A stretch of DNA of 64,000 nucleotides from a virus: positions 1 to 64,000 of IMG/VR virus record IMGVR_UViG_3300017917_002108; one strand, written 5' to 3'. How positions within the stretch are numbered: the stretch's first letter is position 1; every line of letters begins with the position of its first letter. Shown piece by piece: positions 1 through 40,500 of the stretch. The notes under the pieces were generated by a model that saw only the letters and a list, made by a program, of their open reading frames with translations, had not been told where the DNA came from and ran no database searches. The position numbers and the translations under genes are program-made.

Positions 1-20
1 AGAATGCGTAAAAAGGTAGC

Positions 21-86
21 GTATTAAAGTGTTCTTCATTCAGCCCCTGACGCTGTCTAAAAGCATAGCGGAGAACATTTTAATAC
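21..86 (+). other. AU-rich 15-bp hairpin upstream of the tRNA operon
   Basis: Positions 21-35 pair with 72-86 over 15 bp, with one G-U pair, enclosing a 36-nt interior. The design resembles the 18-bp AU-rich stem at 3589-3674, which also sits just before tRNA genes. It could be the 3' end or a processing signal of an RNA that starts left of the window. No coding region is credible in 1-110. The pairing is directly visible; the role is inferred. Confidence 0.5.
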
Positions 87-113
87 ACACTCTCCTTACC
101 GCCTGAACAGTGG

Positions 114-142
114 TTGACAGACATAGTCGGAGAGTGTATAAT
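114..142 (+). promoter_or_regulatory. Consensus sigma70 promoter for the tRNA/ncRNA operon
   Basis: TTGACA at 114-119 and TATAAT at 137-142 are separated by exactly 17 bp, a perfect sigma70 consensus. Transcription would begin near 149, just ahead of tRNA-Tyr at 152, and could continue through the giant structured RNA and the next tRNAs, because I see no terminator before them. Confidence 0.88.
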
Positions 143-151
143 TAATTCATT

Positions 152-236
152 GGATGTGTAGGAAAATTGGTAACCCCAGTGGACTGTAAATCCGCCGCCT
201 CTGGCACTGCTGGTTCGACTCCAGCCGCATCCACCA
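152..236 (+). tRNA. tRNA-Tyr (GTA)
   Basis: The acceptor stem GGATGTG pairs with CGCATCC. The anticodon stem-loop carries GTA in loop CTGTAAA, the variable arm is long (class II), the T-arm has loop TTCGACT, and CCA is encoded at 234-236. It is the first gene after the promoter at 114-142. Confidence 0.9.
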
Positions 237-240
237 TTAA

Positions 241-1361
241 GAAATAGCATTGACGGGTATCGTCTATGGACGCATAGACTTATGAAGGATAGGGCCATCT
301 TACCCTTCTGAGAAAACTGTGAACAATGGCTTATGAGGAGAATCGAACTCCACTCAGAAATACGTTTCATCCCATAGGGTGTAATGTTATTTTTTAATGG
401 TAAAAATTTAAGGGTAGTTTATTATCCTGTTGGCGGCTTGCCGTTGACGAAGAATAAGTTGAGTGATCAACCCAAAGGAGGTAAGCCTACGCAACTCCGC
501 CAGCAATGGTTCATGTAAACAAGCCTGCTCACTACCGTGAGGTAGCGTTCACTTATAAGACGGGTGGATGTAACAGCAAAGCTGATGTTAGGGAAAGAAT
601 GCGTATCGACTGGCCCGCAAGGGAACCAGGGTGCGTGAAAAGTAACAGGTGGTGCTGACTTCCTAACAAAACCAATCAGTCAGTTGGTATGAGAAAGGGT
701 AGTGTATTGGTTCGAAGGGTCGCACCTAAGAGCTCGTATGCAATGTAAATGGTTGGTGGGACACGTTGCGAAACGTTGTTACACTGGTCGTGAAACATCA
801 CTGAGTAGCTCGCGAGGCAAAAGGTATGTGGTGAGTTGTATCGTGTATTCCAAAAGAGTATGCGGCAACTGAGGCAGCTCATCGCGGTAGGTTGTTATAG
901 ATCAATGGTAGATCATTTCTCTGTTAAAGAAACTGCTGTAGGTTCAAATCCTACTAACAAATCAAAAATGCAAAGACTGCCTCGGTTATGTGTGAAAAGC
1001 ATCTAATGCTTGACACGCAAGTGAATCAAGTCTAATGAAGCTCGCAAGGTGACATTAGTTTATACTGGAAGTTTCGTAACGGTTTAGCGACTGTGAATGG
1101 CTCGCAAGGTCAACGGGATAGATGGTGTAGAATAGCACATAACGACAAGCCTACTGCCTGGCTTTAAAAACGGCGATGCTGATAGTGGACATAGATACAG
1201 TAATGGTCTATGTGGATGTCTAGAGAAGGTTTGCTCGCAAGGCGGACTATAATGCTAGAGGCACTATTGGCTAACGTGTAATCTCAGCGTTAGCACTATT
1301 CTAAAACACATTCGCAACCAAATGGGAGTGAAATGTCCGCGGGGAGTGTGTTTCAGAATAG
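241..1361 (+). ncRNA. Giant structured noncoding RNA with an embedded tRNA (GOLLD/ROOL-like)
   Basis: About 1.1 kb has no plausible gene but many strong helices. Seen pairings: 262-268/273-279, 306-312/353-359, 431-436/497-502, 458-462/467-471 with loop GTGA, 532-536/541-545 with loop GTGA, 614-616/621-623 with loop GCAA, 867-877/977-987 enclosing tRNA-Asn, 997-1002/1006-1011, 1032-1037/1053-1058, 1147-1151/1160-1164, 1189-1195/1207-1213, 1270-1276/1288-1294, and 1296-1310/1347-1361 (two 7-bp blocks). A bulged GNRA hairpin of type GCTC-GNRA-GGY recurs at 808, 1040, 1100 and 1233. Large ornate RNAs of the GOLLD and ROOL classes are known next to phage tRNA genes, and GOLLD RNAs can contain a tRNA. 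Assignment to a class is inference, and both boundaries are approximate. Confidence 0.68.
891..962 (+). tRNA. tRNA-Asn (GTT), embedded in the giant RNA
   Basis: A complete cloverleaf is visible: D-stem GATC/GATC, anticodon stem TTTCT/AGAAA with loop CTGTTAA (anticodon GTT), and T-stem GTAGG/CCTAC with loop TTCAAAT. Unlike the other tRNAs here it encodes no CCA and has a G1-A72 mismatch. It is enclosed by an 11-bp helix (867-877 with 977-987), so it is a domain of the surrounding RNA. Whether it is excised and charged cannot be told. Confidence 0.82.
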
Positions 1362-2586: not shown

Positions 2587-2832
2587 ATGGCTAGGATTTC
2601 AGCAGAAGAAGCAGTAAAGGCGATTGGAAACAGATTTGATCTGGTATTGGTCGCTAGTCAAAGAGCCAGAGAAATTAAAAACGGATCCAGACCTAAGATC
2701 TCGGATCAAGATTCAACGCCCTGTGTAGCGGCATTGAAAGAAATTGAAGAAGGCAAATATACCTACAACGATTATTTGAAAACTGTACAACGAAAGAAAA
2801 AAGGACAAAGAGATGAATATTTCCCTACGTAA
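2587..2832 (+). CDS. rpoZ: RNA polymerase omega subunit (RpoZ homologue)
   Basis: The 81-aa product starts [20 protein letters not shown] and continues [10 protein letters not shown], then [11 protein letters not shown]. This follows bacterial omega closely (E. coli: [20 protein letters not shown], then ALREIEEG). The start at ATG 2587 is set by AAGGAAGCAC just upstream and by homology to the omega N-terminus; an earlier in-frame ATG at 2494 is not used. Omega helps fold and assemble beta-prime, and its MAR(V/I)(T/S) N-terminus is part of a ppGpp site in E. coli polymerase; it is kept here. The gene follows its own promoter and long leader and overlaps the next ORF by 20 nt. A phage copy could replace host omega and change polymerase or stringent behaviour; that is inference. 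Confidence 0.9.
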   Translation: [81 protein letters not shown]

Positions 2833-4668: not shown

Positions 4669-4887
4669 ATGTCAAAAAACGATTTAATTGAATTAACAGG
4701 CACTATAAACGAAGTTTTACCAGGTAGCATGTTTAGGGTTAAACTAGATAACATGCCCAATGTTATAACTTGCTACACAGGCGGCAAACTCAAACAGCAT
4801 AAAATTAAAATTATATTAGGCGATCGCGTTAAAGTAGAAGTAAGTGCATATGATCTTACCAAAGGACGTGTGACTTATAGATTATAA
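4669..4887 (+). CDS. infA: Translation initiation factor IF-1
   Basis: The product is 72 aa, the same length as E. coli IF-1, and matches it along its length: [20 protein letters not shown] against [20 protein letters not shown], then a GK loop, [19 protein letters not shown] and a final R. This is the single OB-fold that binds the 30S A site during initiation. The start is set by AATGAGGTCAA just upstream. It has its own promoter (4613-4641). A phage copy could alter 30S selection or favour phage start sites, which fits with the initiator tRNA next door and the probable leaderless genes in this window; that link is inference. Confidence 0.93.
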
Positions 4888-4894
4888 GTAAAGT

Positions 4895-5113
4895 ATGTAT
4901 GAAGTAAAATGGCAAGACACAGCGGGTAGAGGCTGTGTGGAAGAAGTAATAGATCTATCAGCAGCACTGGCATTGGCCACTGCACTAGGAATACCAGTAA
5001 CCATAAATGGAAACGGTATAGAGCTTGTAGGAACTTTTGGTTCCGCAGGCGTAGAAAATGGACGATTACCAAACGGTGATCCCTACACTTGGTACAAAAG
5101 GAGACGACCATGA
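4895..5113 (+). CDS. Hypothetical protein (72 aa)
   Basis: The ORF begins 7 nt after infA with a weak AAGTAAAG site and ends overlapping the release factor start by 4 nt (ATGA). The product shows an N-terminal strand, an Ala/Leu-rich helix (residues about 22-34) and a short basic tail. No family is recognised. Its position between IF-1 and a release factor makes a translation-related role possible but unproven. Confidence 0.68.
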   Translation: MYEVKWQDTAGRGCVEEVIDLSAALALATALGIPVTINGNGIELVGTFGSAGVENGRLPNGDPYTWYKRRRP

Positions 5114-5787
5114 AACGAGTGATTGAAATCCGTGCCGCAGAGGGCGGTGAAGATTCAAAACTATTTGTCAGCGATCTCGCGACCGCTTACCAGAAATTGG
5201 GAATGAAACTAGGTTGAACTACCCGCCTGATAGATGTACGTCTTGGCGAGTGTAGTTTACTTGTTGAGGGCGCAGATCTATCCGGCTTAGACAATGAGCC
5301 CGGAGGTCATAGAATACAGCGTGTTCCTCCCACGGAACGCAAGGGCAGAGTTCATACCAGCACCGTTACCGTCGCGGTCATAGACAGCGAGGATGCCTGG
5401 ACAGCACCAACTATACATAAGTCCGATCTAAAGATTGAATGGTATAGTGGTACTGGGGCTGGTGGACAATATCGCAACAAACATCAAAACAGTTGTCGTA
5501 TCACACACATTCCTTCAGGAATCGTAGCCAAATCAGAATGCCGTAGTCGCCAAAATAGTTTGGATTCCGCTATGGCGGAAATACAACAGCGCATTGACAG
5601 CGAAGCCAAAAGATCGTATAATAATAACATAGCCTGCAATAGAAAGCAGCAAGTTGGGTCAGGCATGCGGGGAGACAAAATCCGCACCTACAGATTCCAG
5701 GACGATTCTGTTCAAGATCATCTGACAGGCTGTAGAGCAAAATGTTCCGCAGTTTTGAAAGGCAATATAGATTTACTTTGGAGATAA
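5110..5787 (+). CDS. Short RF1-like peptide chain release factor with an in-frame UGA
   Basis: Reading one frame from ATG 5110 gives a release factor of about 225 aa lacking domain 1. Order of motifs: IEIRAAEGGEDSKLF (start of domain 2), an in-frame TGA at codon 36 (5215-5217), then GHRIQRVPPTERKGRVHTS with PPT in the place of the RF1 PxT codon-recognition motif, the catalytic GTGAGGQYRNKHQNS, and GSGMRGDKIRTYRF near the end. The stop is TAA at 5785-5787. The frame is open and conserved-looking on both sides of the TGA, with no in-frame ATG, GTG or TTG after it until Met at 5571, beyond GGQ. A potential hairpin starts at the TGA (5217-5257). UGA readthrough, TGG-to-TGA mutation, sequencing error or early decay are the alternatives. 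Confidence 0.78.
5217..5257 (+). promoter_or_regulatory. Potential recoding hairpin immediately after the in-frame UGA
   Basis: AACTAC (5217-5222) pairs with GTAGTT (5252-5257), and after a small internal loop CGCC (5224-5227) pairs with GGCG (5245-5248), with a further AGA/TCT pairing inside the loop. A stem this close to a stop codon is the type of element that promotes readthrough in several recoding systems. The pairing is visible; function is inferred. Confidence 0.45.
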
Positions 5788-5789
5788 AC

Positions 5790-6287
5790 ATGGCACCATG
5801 GATTCAGAATGTATCGCTCAGCGATGTACGTAAAGGTCATCACATCGATGCGGGCATCAATTCCATGTTGATCCAGATCGTAGATCCAGCAATGGAGTTT
5901 CCTGCACCGTCTTATCAGTTTCGAGAAGTTCATCAATTCGAGTTCTTGGATCTTGAAAAGAGCGATAATTGTATTAACGACGATTGGAAGATACAAGATG
6001 CGCAGGCCGCAGAACTTGTAAGGCTTCTACAACATGCTTTAGAGCATAAGATGAATGTGGTTGTTCATTGTGTAGCGGGCGTCTGTCGTTCGGGTGCTGT
6101 CTGCGAGATTGGAGTTATGATGGGCTTCCGTGATACTGAAGTTTTTCGTTCACCTAATCTATTAGTCAAGCACAAGATGATGAAGTGCCTGGGTTGGACC
6201 TATGATGAAAAAGAAGCTCATACGATCAATGGTGTGATTTTAGATTCCGGCCTTATTGTGCCAAAAAATTATGAAGGGGGTATTTAA
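5790..6287 (+). CDS. Protein tyrosine/dual-specificity phosphatase-like protein
   Basis: The start at ATG 5790 follows TTTGGAGATAAAC, 2 nt after the release factor stop; an upstream in-frame ATG lies inside that gene. The 165-aa product has the cysteine phosphatase loop at about residues 91-98, HCVAGVCRSG, matching HCx5R with the catalytic Cys and Arg present. A likely general acid lies in the segment about residues 60-75, which contains DDW. It would remove phosphate from Tyr or Ser/Thr residues, or possibly from a small molecule. The stop overlaps the next gene's start (TAATG). Confidence 0.8.
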   Translation: MAPWIQNVSLSDVRKGHHIDAGINSMLIQIVDPAMEFPAPSYQFREVHQFEFLDLEKSDNCINDDWKIQDAQAAELVRLLQHALEHKMNVVVHCVAGVCRSGAVCEIGVMMGFRDTEVFRSPNLLVKHKMMKCLGWTYDEKEAHTINGVILDSGLIVPKNYEGGI

Positions 6288-37500: not shown

Positions 37501-40500
37501 AGAATCAACTATGTTAGAGATTATGTATTTCATCCGTCCGGATCAACAGCATCTCTAGTATTAGACGAATCAACTCCTTGGCCATTTGATATATTCACAT
37601 ATAATTCTGCTATCTGTAGTAGAGATGTGGGATTAATCATAGACGGTCTAGGATATGATATAGTTCTAAATACAAACTATCATTCTAGAAAATCAGGTCT
37701 AAGTTATAGACAGGCTAATGCATCAGTGGTCATTGAAGACCAATTACAACTAACATTAGATGCTATATCCTATGCACATACCACAGCATTTGGCCTGTTA
37801 GATTCTTATCCGGCGGCACAGTCTACCGTACAATCCAGTGAACTAATAATTCTAGATATCGTAGAAAACGGTACGACATTTGCCCCTGCTCTAATTATCA
37901 CAGCTCCTACAGGTTTATCAGCTAATCTAGTCAAAGCTAAAAATCAATTAGAAAATAATATAGCTTATATAAAGGCAGAAGTTTTAGGATATATGAATAC
38001 CACATATCCAGCGTTGGGTCTAGATGAAGATAGATTTAATACCGATATTCAATATATCATAGAAGGTTTGATCTATGACCTAACCTATGGCGGAAACAGC
38101 GAAACTAGAAAATCTGGTTTGAGATTTTACGATGGAGTAGGTTCTGCCGTAGCTTTACAGATTCCTTCCGGTCAGTTAATTGAAACAAGTCAAGGTGTAT
38201 TGTATGCCAGCTATCTAGCACAACAAGTTGTTCGAAACCTTGCACCTGCGGTGACCTATTCGGCTGTTCCCAGAACTTCTGGCGCAGCAGCATCTGCCAC
38301 AGAGGCTACTTTAATAAACACCTTAGTGGCCAATGTCAACGGCATTCTACTAGGAGGTCCGGGTGCCGCGGCTGCTGAAGTGCTGCCGGACCTTACCGCT
38401 TATCCTTATACGGTCAACGATCTTAATGCTAGAACTATTCTTGTAACAGAAAAGTCAGATATACAACAGGCAGTGATAGATTATGTTGACGAAAACGCCA
38501 ATGTATATGAGGTATTGATGCCGGGCAATAGATCTATGTTAAGCAATGACTTTACACAGATCAATGACCTCGGTTATGGTATTGTGGTAAACAATGGAGG
38601 TCTGATAGAGGCTGTTTCTATGTTTACCTACTACTGCCATATATCATATTATTCTATGGGTGGTGGTCAGATACGTTCAGTGGCTGGATCTAGTGCTCAT
38701 GGAAATTATGCACTAGTGGCACAGGGTGCGGACCCACTAGAAGTTCCTACTCCGGTTACACTGTATTATAATCTAGCACAGGGCATAACCTGTTACTTTC
38801 CCTCTGGCTCATATGCTAACGCTGTAAGTGGGTTGGTTATCTTTGTTACCTACGATGACTATGTGCCTCTCGACGTCAGCGAATTAGAAATTGACCACGG
38901 ACTAGGCCAGGTGTATAGGTATCCAGTAGTATCTGTCAGCACTGCTGATCTTCCTGCAGGCGTTGCTAGACTGGGTCTAAGAAGCAGTGAGGGCACAGGA
39001 GTAGATGGACTTGCAGCAGTAGTACCAAACGGTACTAGAATGACCATAAGACAGAATGCACAGGTAGTACTCACAGGAGATGTAGTACAAGTGGCTGTGC
39101 GTCCTTCGACCGGTCTGGTACTTGCAGAAAGCGTAGATGTTTATCGTATTCTCCAGTTTGAAAATTATACTGATCCCGCCGGGGGAAGAATATTCACTAT
39201 CTCTATAGCATCACCTGCGGTAATTACCAGAACCTCACATGGTTTGAGGCCAGGTTATCAGATCAGTTTAACTACTACGGGAACACTTCCAACTGGGGTA
39301 GACACCTTAACTACTTATTATGTTGTATCTGATGGTTTCACAGCTAATTCTTTTAGAATTTCAACGACAAAAAACGGTTCTCCCATAACTACTTCAGGCT
39401 CACAATCAGGAGTTCATAGCTATATTGTAGAAGGACTGGCAAGAACTACTTTAAGAGAAAACTATAACTATGTCGATTTATCTCTGTGGAGCACACAAGA
39501 GTATAGTGGTTCGACTAACACCTGTACTATTACCATAGCGGCACCGGCTGTGGTCACCTGTGCCAGTCACGGATTTATTGCAGGGGATGTCATAAGATTT
39601 ACAACCACGGGCACATTGCCTGGTGGTATGAGTACGAATAAACATTATTTCGTCACTGCTACTCCGAGTCCGAACACATTTAGATTCACTGATGTGGCCA
39701 CAGGTGCAGGGGTTGATCTTGATACCTTTGGTACACAATCGGGTACTCATAGTGTAGGAAAAGTCAAAGGCTATGCCGGCGATAATGTATTGGCTATAAC
39801 TGCGCTAGGTACAGCTGATGCAGAAAGAGTTCTCAATACTAAATTTGTATGGAAAGGAACCACTCACACAGTAATTTCATACGAAAACGAAACTGTTACT
39901 GGTCAGCCTTATGCTAGAATAACCATAAGTCCTGCATTGTCTGACAGTGTGGTATATTTTACGTACCTTCCTACTTTAAAATCTGCTACATTAAAAGATG
40001 AACCGGGTACACTAACTATTAGAATTTCTTTAACTCGTGTTACATCACACGATTTATTAGAAATTGGTACAGGTTCTTATGCAGATACTAATTATCCTAA
40101 CGAAATCTATGGTCCTCCGGTAAATTCAATCAACGATGCCAATGAAACAGAAGAGCGAGGGGTTGGTCGAGTTTTCTATGTTACTACTGATCAATTTGGT
40201 AACTTCTCAGTAGGTCCATATTTCCGTGTAGACCAAGGCACTGGTACTGTTACTTTTGCAGCAGCTATCGCTCTAAGTAACCTAGATGGTATCGGTTTTA
40301 AACGTGGTGTACCAGTTTCAGAATTCTCTACAGACACTGGATTTTCGGATAACGCCACAGATACTGTACCTACAGAAAATGCCACTAGAGGTTATTTAGA
40401 TCGACGTTTGGGTCTTAGCCATACTGGAGATATAGTATCAGCTACTAGCCTTATTCCTGCGATAACAGGCGGATTCATGTCCTTAGACGGTCAACTGAGC

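What the first reader, a model, noticed from the sequence alone, without database searches (positions are those of the whole stretch)
241..1361. Giant ornate noncoding RNA in the tRNA operon
About 1.1 kb without genes, between a perfect promoter/tRNA-Tyr and tRNA-Pro, shows at least 13 strong helices and many GNRA tetraloops (GTGA, GCAA, GCGA). It ends in two adjacent 7-bp helices, 1296-1302/1355-1361 and 1304-1310/1347-1353. The size, tRNA context and embedded tRNA are like the GOLLD class (and ROOL), whose functions are still unclear. The phage setting and association with omega, IF-1 and a release factor are notable.
Basis: partly seen in the sequence, partly recalled or inferred. Interest (0 to 1): 0.82.

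Follow-up and report, generated by a model that had tools for sequence, protein, structure and literature searches.

The report
Phage RNA cage carrying tRNA mimic
A phage tRNA cluster encodes a member of the known GOLLD family of giant RNAs (which form hollow RNA cages), carrying inside it a tRNA look-alike whose amino-acid end is cut short in over a hundred relatives, and it sits beside a second, previously undescribed structured RNA.

Summary
The finding is real and is a GOLLD RNA: Rfam RF02032 matches 828-1290 full length (215.6 bits, E 1e-59). The stretch 241-1361 is three things. (1) 232-407 is a separate ~176-nt structured RNA, not in Rfam, found in at least 46 phage tRNA arrays, mostly away from GOLLD; 33 of 39 pairs covary. 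(2) About 411-1294 is GOLLD: a variable 5' domain (76 of 120 pairs with compensatory changes), a linker, and the conserved 3' domain. (3) 1296-1361 is a 3' hairpin shared by some relatives. ROOL is not supported.

The embedded 'tRNA-Asn' is not an ordinary tRNA. In 118 distinct relatives the inner four acceptor pairs form in 95-98% of cases and the outer three only at chance level. Encoded CCA: 0 of 70, against 1293 of 1340 free-standing tRNAs in the same loci. D, anticodon and T arms covary, and the cassette swaps between GOLLD backbones. By homology GOLLD forms a 14-mer cage with this linker inside (inferred). I think the domain most likely acts as caged bait for tRNA-binding enzymes, possibly tRNA-cutting defences (about 30%). 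tRNAs in GOLLD linkers were known; the consistent 4-bp acceptor, missing CCA and cassette exchange I did not find described in the papers held.

The parts
114..142 (+). sigma-70 promoter (TTGACA 114-119, TATAAT 137-142) that probably transcribes tRNA-Tyr, the 232-407 RNA and GOLLD together
   Evidence: 12/12 consensus match; no GOLLD-proximal promoter in the window, unlike 19/77 relatives
152..236 (+). tRNA-Tyr(GUA), with encoded CCA
232..407 (+). separate ~176-nt structured RNA of phage tRNA arrays: closing stem 234-251/383-400 (it includes the CCA of the upstream tRNA), hairpin 262-268/273-279, likely pseudoknot 284-288/304-308 with 292-298/326-332
   Evidence: covariance model R1, 206.5 bits; 33 of 39 pairs with both-side changes, 98% of cells paired, 0/500 shuffles; no Rfam match at or below E 1 here
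411..1294 (+). GOLLD RNA, about 884 nt
   Evidence: RF02032 215.6 bits over 828-1290; 5' end set by homology and by promoter positions in 19/77 relatives
411..885 (+). GOLLD variable 5' domain (the cap of the half-shell in the env-38 structure)
   Evidence: RNAalifold over 77 nonredundant homologues: 120 pairs, 76 with compensatory changes
523..529 (+). GCCUGCU, predicted to pair with 886-892 GUAGGUU and so use the first nucleotides of the would-be tRNA
   Evidence: 97-100% paired in 77 homologues but nearly invariant, so no covariation test
886..965 (+). linker with the tRNA-like domain: inner acceptor pairs 894-897/955-958, D arm, anticodon loop with GUU 923-925, T arm; no CCA
966..1290 (+). 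GOLLD conserved 3' domain after the linker, ending in the GUGUAAUCUCAGC hairpin 1270-1276/1288-1294
1296..1361 (+). 3'-flanking long hairpin (1296-1313/1344-1361), probably a processing or stabilising hairpin before tRNA-Pro
   Evidence: also complete in L128, L165, L194, L265 and nearly so in L141, L184
1368..1446 (+). tRNA-Pro(UGG), downstream boundary

Best explanation
Window 411-1294 encodes a GOLLD RNA (shown), co-transcribed with tRNA-Tyr from the promoter at 114-142 (inferred from the sequence). By homology to the cryo-EM structure of GOLLD env-38, about 14 copies assemble without protein into a hollow cage whose variable linker points inward (inferred). In this phage clade the linker is an exchangeable tRNA-like domain kept under selection for D arm, anticodon arm, T arm and elbow, but with only a 4-bp acceptor stem and no CCA (shown). 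It is therefore very unlikely to be an amino-acid-accepting tRNA and would present up to 14 uncharged tRNA mimics inside the cage (inferred). Most likely function: bait that sequesters enzymes which recognise tRNA elbows and anticodon loops, the best candidates being host tRNA-cleaving defence nucleases. Rough probabilities: GOLLD identity 0.98; cage 0.8; not a working tRNA 0.9; bait for tRNA-binding enzymes 0.4; bait specifically for defence nucleases 0.3.
For: GOLLD identity: RF02032 over its full length; 65 of 100 first-scan records confirmed by the same model, 0 of 14 control genomes; the covarying 5' domain belongs to the same unit. Not a normal tRNA: CCA 0/70 against 1293/1340 neighbours; consensus cloverleaf with exactly 4 acceptor pairs in 90 linkers; outer three acceptor pairs at the level of shuffled partners, inner four 0/2000 shuffles; 15 of 119 have anticodon loops of 6, 8 or 9 nt. 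Selected as a tRNA shape: T-loop U54 C56 A58 in 113-114 of 114, U33 in 102 of 104, GG in the D loop in 113 of 119. Exchange: window against L171 83% / 100% / 86% identity in 5' domain / linker / 3' domain, against L140 85% / 63% / 89%; linker less conserved than both flanks in 127 of 155 pairs. Anticodon bias: 73 of 104 are NUU (Asn/Lys), 88 of 104 have U36; the main AriB targets of the PARIS defence are tRNA-Lys(UUU), Thr(UGU) and Asn(GUU) (PMC12409363). Cage and inward linker: PMC12286853.
Against: No experiment here: expression, assembly, charging and binding partners are untested for this clade. Some clade members have no cloverleaf in the linker (L157, L185, L173, L125) and cultured Xanthomonas phage X1 has a short linker, so the mimic is not essential to GOLLD. 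Odd-sized anticodon loops weaken an anticodon-specific bait. Only 7 of 119 have U39, and U39A abolishes E. coli AriB cleavage (PMC12409363), so cleavage by that enzyme is unlikely; binding without cleavage would be needed. A closed cage could hide the bait from proteins. The Asn/Lys bias could partly be inherited.
Confidence: 0.7

Rival explanations
1. The embedded element is an ordinary phage tRNA-Asn that is cut out of the GOLLD transcript and used in translation.
For: ARAGORN and Rfam call a tRNA (62.5 bits); it lies in a tRNA operon; annotators of Phaeobacter phage MD18 called the same element tRNA-Arg.
Against: No encoded CCA in 70 cases against 96% in neighbours; outer acceptor pairs at chance; odd anticodon loop lengths in 15 of 119; the 5' nucleotides are predicted to pair with GOLLD 523-529. 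A 'pseudo tRNA' in a mycobacterial GOLLD was not detectably expressed (PMC6582537).
Confidence: 0.05
2. The tRNA-like domain is ballast: the cage tolerates any compact folded insert in its linker, and captured tRNAs persist without a function of their own.
For: Linkers without tRNA exist in GOLLD and most first-scan GOLLD hits are about 405 nt without a tRNA.
Against: All arms covary, T-loop and D-loop elbow residues are almost invariant, the 4-bp acceptor is uniform, and whole cassettes move between backbones.
Confidence: 0.3
3. The tRNA-like domain recruits ribosomes or translation factors so that the cage stores or silences them late in infection.
For: The 2025 cryo-EM paper reports that ribosomes bind GOLLD in pull-downs (PMC12286853); the operon also carries IF-1 and a release factor.
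Against: Linkers without any tRNA exist; a tRNA without acceptor end should bind ribosomes poorly (general knowledge).
Confidence: 0.2
4. The whole 241-1361 stretch is one RNA of about 1.1 kb.
For: No clear terminator separates the parts (one weak terminator-like site at 368-381) and they probably share one transcript.
Against: 232-407 is a closed covarying module found without GOLLD next to it in most of its loci; 19 of 77 GOLLD relatives have a promoter whose start point fits position 411.
Confidence: 0.04

Closest known systems
GOLLD RNA (Rfam RF02032; env-38 structure, Kretsch et al. 2025, PMC12286853)
   Same: Full-length match of the conserved 3' domain, variable 5' domain, linker at the same place, phage tRNA-cluster setting, L21a-type loop with a GC centre (UUAGCG in 19 of 24 distinct hairpins found)
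   Different: The linker (42 nt, disordered in env-38) is here a ~75-nt tRNA-like domain; 5' domain of another lineage; assembly not shown for this clade
Mycobacterial GOLLD with 'pseudo tRNA' (PMC6582537)
   Same: A tRNA-like sequence inside GOLLD with no detectable tRNA product
   Different: Described as one pseudogene in one species; here a clade-wide, covarying, exchangeable domain with a uniform 4-bp acceptor
ROOL RNA
   Same: Giant phage RNA near tRNA arrays that forms a cage (literature)
   Different: No Rfam ROOL match in the window
Phage tRNAs that counter tRNA-cleaving defences (PMC11555353, PMC10264068, PMC12409363)
   Same: Phage tRNA arrays; overlap of anticodons Asn(GUU), Lys(UUU), Thr(UGU)
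   Different: Those are functional replacement tRNAs; the GOLLD domain cannot replace a tRNA, so any effect would be by binding

Membership tests
GOLLD (RF02032) | Covariance-model match over the conserved 3' domain above the gathering score | tested here: met
   215.6 bits against 150, positions 1-416 of 416
GOLLD (RF02032) | Large structured, variable 5' domain upstream | tested here: met
   411-885, 76 of 120 pairs with compensatory changes in 77 homologues
GOLLD (RF02032) | Variable linker between 5' and 3' domains, sometimes with a tRNA | tested here: met
   linker 886-965 with a tRNA-like domain
GOLLD (RF02032) | Phage or prophage location near tRNA genes | tested here: met
   146.6-kb virus record, 11 tRNA calls in the window
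GOLLD (RF02032) | Homo-oligomeric cage (14-mer) | not testable with these tools
   Only inference from homology; a GC-centred L21a-like loop is kept
ROOL | Match to the ROOL covariance model | tested here: not met
   No ROOL match at gathering score in the window nor at E of 1 or less in 1-1700
functional tRNA | 7-bp acceptor stem | tested here: not met
   Window has a 1:72 G-A mismatch; across 118 relatives pairs 1:72, 2:71, 3:70 are at chance level
functional tRNA | Encoded CCA, as in the other tRNAs of the cluster | tested here: not met
   0/70 against 1293/1340
functional tRNA | Aminoacylation and use in translation | not testable with these tools
   needs an experiment

The most novel reading that the evidence does not exclude
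Phages display uncharged, exchangeable tRNA mimics inside self-assembled RNA cages as anti-defence bait for tRNA-targeting host enzymes, which would be a function for GOLLD; and the adjacent 232-407 element is a new phage RNA class that folds onto the CCA end of the preceding tRNA in tRNA arrays.
Probability: 0.2. Interest if true: 0.9.

Novelty: new variant of a known kind. Interest (0 to 1): 0.62.

Why it matters
GOLLD cages have atomic structures but no known function. A linker kept under selection as a tRNA shape that cannot accept an amino acid, with swappable anticodons, turns 'what is the cage for?' into testable predictions about tRNA-binding partners. Cultured phages with this GOLLD type exist (Phaeobacter phage MD18; DSS3_MAL1), so tests are feasible. 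The neighbouring 176-nt RNA adds an undescribed structured RNA to phage tRNA arrays.

Tried and rejected
ROOL: no match. Scans of 84,980 bacterial and archaeal genomes for the clade's linker motif and for the 232-407 motif found nothing, so no host or prophage could be named. The blastn hit to Aeromonas phage 60AhydR15PP was not pursued: it covers only 10% of the query, in two pieces that include the tRNA-Tyr and tRNA-Pro ends. Of the records sent to cmsearch in the first round, 35 of 100 did not pass the GOLLD cut-off and were dropped. L312 and L313 looked like permuted tRNAs by pattern but lack the GOLLD context and read like coding DNA. Self-kissing of anticodon loops through UUAA was considered but not tested formally; several variants break the palindrome. 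Replacement of a missing phage tRNA was rejected: 28 of 46 tRNA-rich loci also carry a free tRNA with the same anticodon. Transcription of the window GOLLD from its own promoter was rejected. Mycobacteriophage Bxz1 was not in the collection under two accession numbers, so the mycobacterial pseudo tRNA could not be compared.

Full report
WHAT IS THERE. Window 828-1290 matches the Rfam GOLLD model end to end, 215.6 bits, E 1.3e-59, gathering score 150. The record is a 146.6-kb virus with one GOLLD. There is no ROOL match. The gene-free stretch between tRNA-Tyr (152-236) and tRNA-Pro (1368-1446) is confirmed, as is the 12/12 promoter at 114-142.

HOMOLOGUES. A conserved GOLLD pattern gave 120 loci in viral contigs; 65 of the 100 records searched passed the GOLLD cut-off. 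L106 and L107 are 81-82% identical to the window and share its tRNA-Tyr. Two patterns specific to the window's lineage gave 97 and 119 loci; one of them was also run on 84,980 bacterial and archaeal genomes and found nothing, so this lineage may be restricted to lytic phages, though that is a pattern search only. Members checked with the covariance model all scored above the cut-off: L106, L107, L007, L018, L024, L038, L090, L101, L134, L151, L157, L185, L140, L162, L171 and cultured Phaeobacter phage MD18 and DSS3_MAL1. Cultured Xanthomonas phages X1 and XacN1 and Stenotrophomonas phage CM1 also carry GOLLD. Not every locus used in the statistics below was checked one by one with the model; the rest were accepted because the lineage motif lay between conserved GOLLD flanks.

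LIMITS OF THE RNA. Homology to L106 begins at 411. In 19 of 77 relatives a near-consensus sigma-70 promoter ends its -10 box 8-10 nt before the equivalent of 412, which puts the start at about 411. The window lacks such a promoter, so its GOLLD is probably read from the tRNA-Tyr promoter. The 5' domain (411-892) has 120 consensus pairs in 77 nonredundant homologues, 76 with compensatory changes. 411-1294 is more stable than 20 of 20 shuffles (z -2.72).

THE EMBEDDED tRNA-LIKE DOMAIN. In this lineage the linker between the conserved GUAGGU and GCAAAG is mostly 70-80 nt, and 119 of 125 distinct linkers parse as a cloverleaf with my own permissive parser (no shuffle control was run for the parser itself). 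RNAalifold over 90 linkers gives a cloverleaf with exactly four acceptor pairs, and the four arms covary. Counting by position in 118 sequences, the inner four acceptor pairs form in 116, 112, 114 and 113, never reached in 2000 partner shuffles; the next three form in 61, 46 and 57, the same as shuffled. No encoded CCA was found in 70 ARAGORN-called domains, against 1293 of 1340 free-standing tRNAs in the same loci; one of 119 has CCA near that place in the wider set. 15 of 119 have anticodon loops that are not 7 nt. The T-loop and D-loop elbow residues are almost invariant. In the window the stem has six contiguous pairs and a 1:72 G-A mismatch, so it is at the long end of the range. A likely reason for the short stem is that the preceding GUAGGUU is predicted to pair with GCCUGCU at 523-529; that helix is nearly invariant and so not supported by covariation.

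EXCHANGE. The window and L171 differ by 14-17% in the 5' and 3' domains but have identical tRNA-like domains; the window and L140 are 85% and 89% identical in the flanks and 63% in the domain. Among 155 pairs of relatives, the domain is less conserved than both flanks in 127 (only 400 of 1363 candidate pairs were examined and the pairs are not independent). Anticodons: 37 GUU, 18 UUU, 17 CUU, 7 UCU and a mixed rest among 104 seven-nt loops. Two relatives (L134, identical to L209, and L151) carry instead what looks like a circularly permuted tRNA, with T arm, 3' acceptor strand with CCA, loop, 5' acceptor strand, D arm and anticodon arm, and 7-bp acceptors (both confirmed as GOLLD).

HOW IT PROBABLY WORKS. 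The cryo-EM structure of GOLLD env-38 is a closed 14-mer with an empty interior and the disordered linker inside (PMC12286853); the authors already note that tRNAs are sometimes present in the linker. A mycobacterial GOLLD 'pseudo tRNA' was not detectably expressed (PMC6582537). Shown here: the domain is selected as a tRNA shape but not as an amino-acid acceptor, and it moves as a cassette. Inferred: it is displayed in a cage and binds tRNA-recognising proteins. [quoted passage not shown] PMC12409363), and 81 of the loops have the U36-A37-A38 that those targets share; but position 39 is U in only 7 of 119, and U39A abolishes AriB cleavage, so any such bait would have to bind without being cut. 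I hold this specific version at about 30%.

A SECOND RNA AT 232-407. It was found because 232-410 is 86-98% conserved in some relatives and lies away from GOLLD in one. A pattern scan gave 38 contigs. In 39 loci examined, a flanking tRNA is the rule and only about 10 have GOLLD close downstream. A covariance model from 24 sequences found the window copy once in its genome and further, mostly divergent copies, eight of them at 46-162 bits. On 32 sequences 33 of 39 pairs have both-side changes, 98% of cells pair, and no shuffle or slid control comes near. This alignment was fitted to the model, which favours it, but 18 of 39 pairs already had both-side changes in the unfitted alignment. Its closing stem takes in the CCA of the upstream tRNA in the window. 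The pseudoknot is read by eye from the alignment (one search did not align that helix cleanly). No Rfam family matches it, and no copy was found in cultured phages or genomes. Function unknown; a role in tRNA-array processing is a guess.

NOVELTY. The finding as given is a member of a known family. The clade-wide truncated, exchangeable tRNA-like domain is a variant that I did not find described; the original 2009 GOLLD paper and the 2020 mycobacterial GOLLD paper were not available in the library, so part of it may be in print.

Noticed in passing
window 232-407; also L140, L170, L171, L183, L184, L274, L285, L317-L345, and divergent copies in L200, L263, L234, L169, L255, L262, L232: Undescribed ~176-nt structured RNA in phage tRNA arrays; its closing stem includes the upstream tRNA's CCA; 33 of 39 pairs covary; no Rfam match. 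In most of the closer copies a conserved AUCGAAC is complementary to the tRNA T-loop.
   Followed up: partly
window 5110-5790: RF-1-type release factor (PPT motif) with one in-frame UGA at codon 36; the same UGA is in 33 of 34 relatives compared, at the place where release factors have a conserved tryptophan (from memory), while UGA looks like a normal stop elsewhere in the window. Suggests programmed readthrough.
   Followed up: partly
L134 4746-4870 (same in L209) and L151 7594-7720: GOLLD linkers that look like circularly permuted tRNAs with CCA and 7-bp acceptor stems.
   Followed up: partly
L134 8196-8535; L314 3714-4129; L315 3554-3970: Phage-encoded permuted alphaproteobacterial tmRNA downstream of GOLLD, 60 bases to 3 kb away; hints at alphaproteobacterial hosts for those phages.
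   Followed up: no
window 2587-2832 and 4669-4887: Phage homologues of RNA polymerase omega (Pfam RNA_pol_Rpb6, 2.5e-15) and IF-1 (8.7e-18) in the same region.
   Followed up: no
window 1-100 and L106 5082-5209: A repeated hairpin-like sequence (GGTAGCGTATTAAAGTGTTC...) precedes the tRNA promoter in the window and the GOLLD promoter in L106; minus-strand terminator-like site at 95-70.
   Followed up: no
Xanthomonas phage XacN1 (AP018399) 38570-38983 and 357365-357778: Two equal-scoring GOLLD copies in one cultured phage record, possibly in terminal repeats.
   Followed up: no
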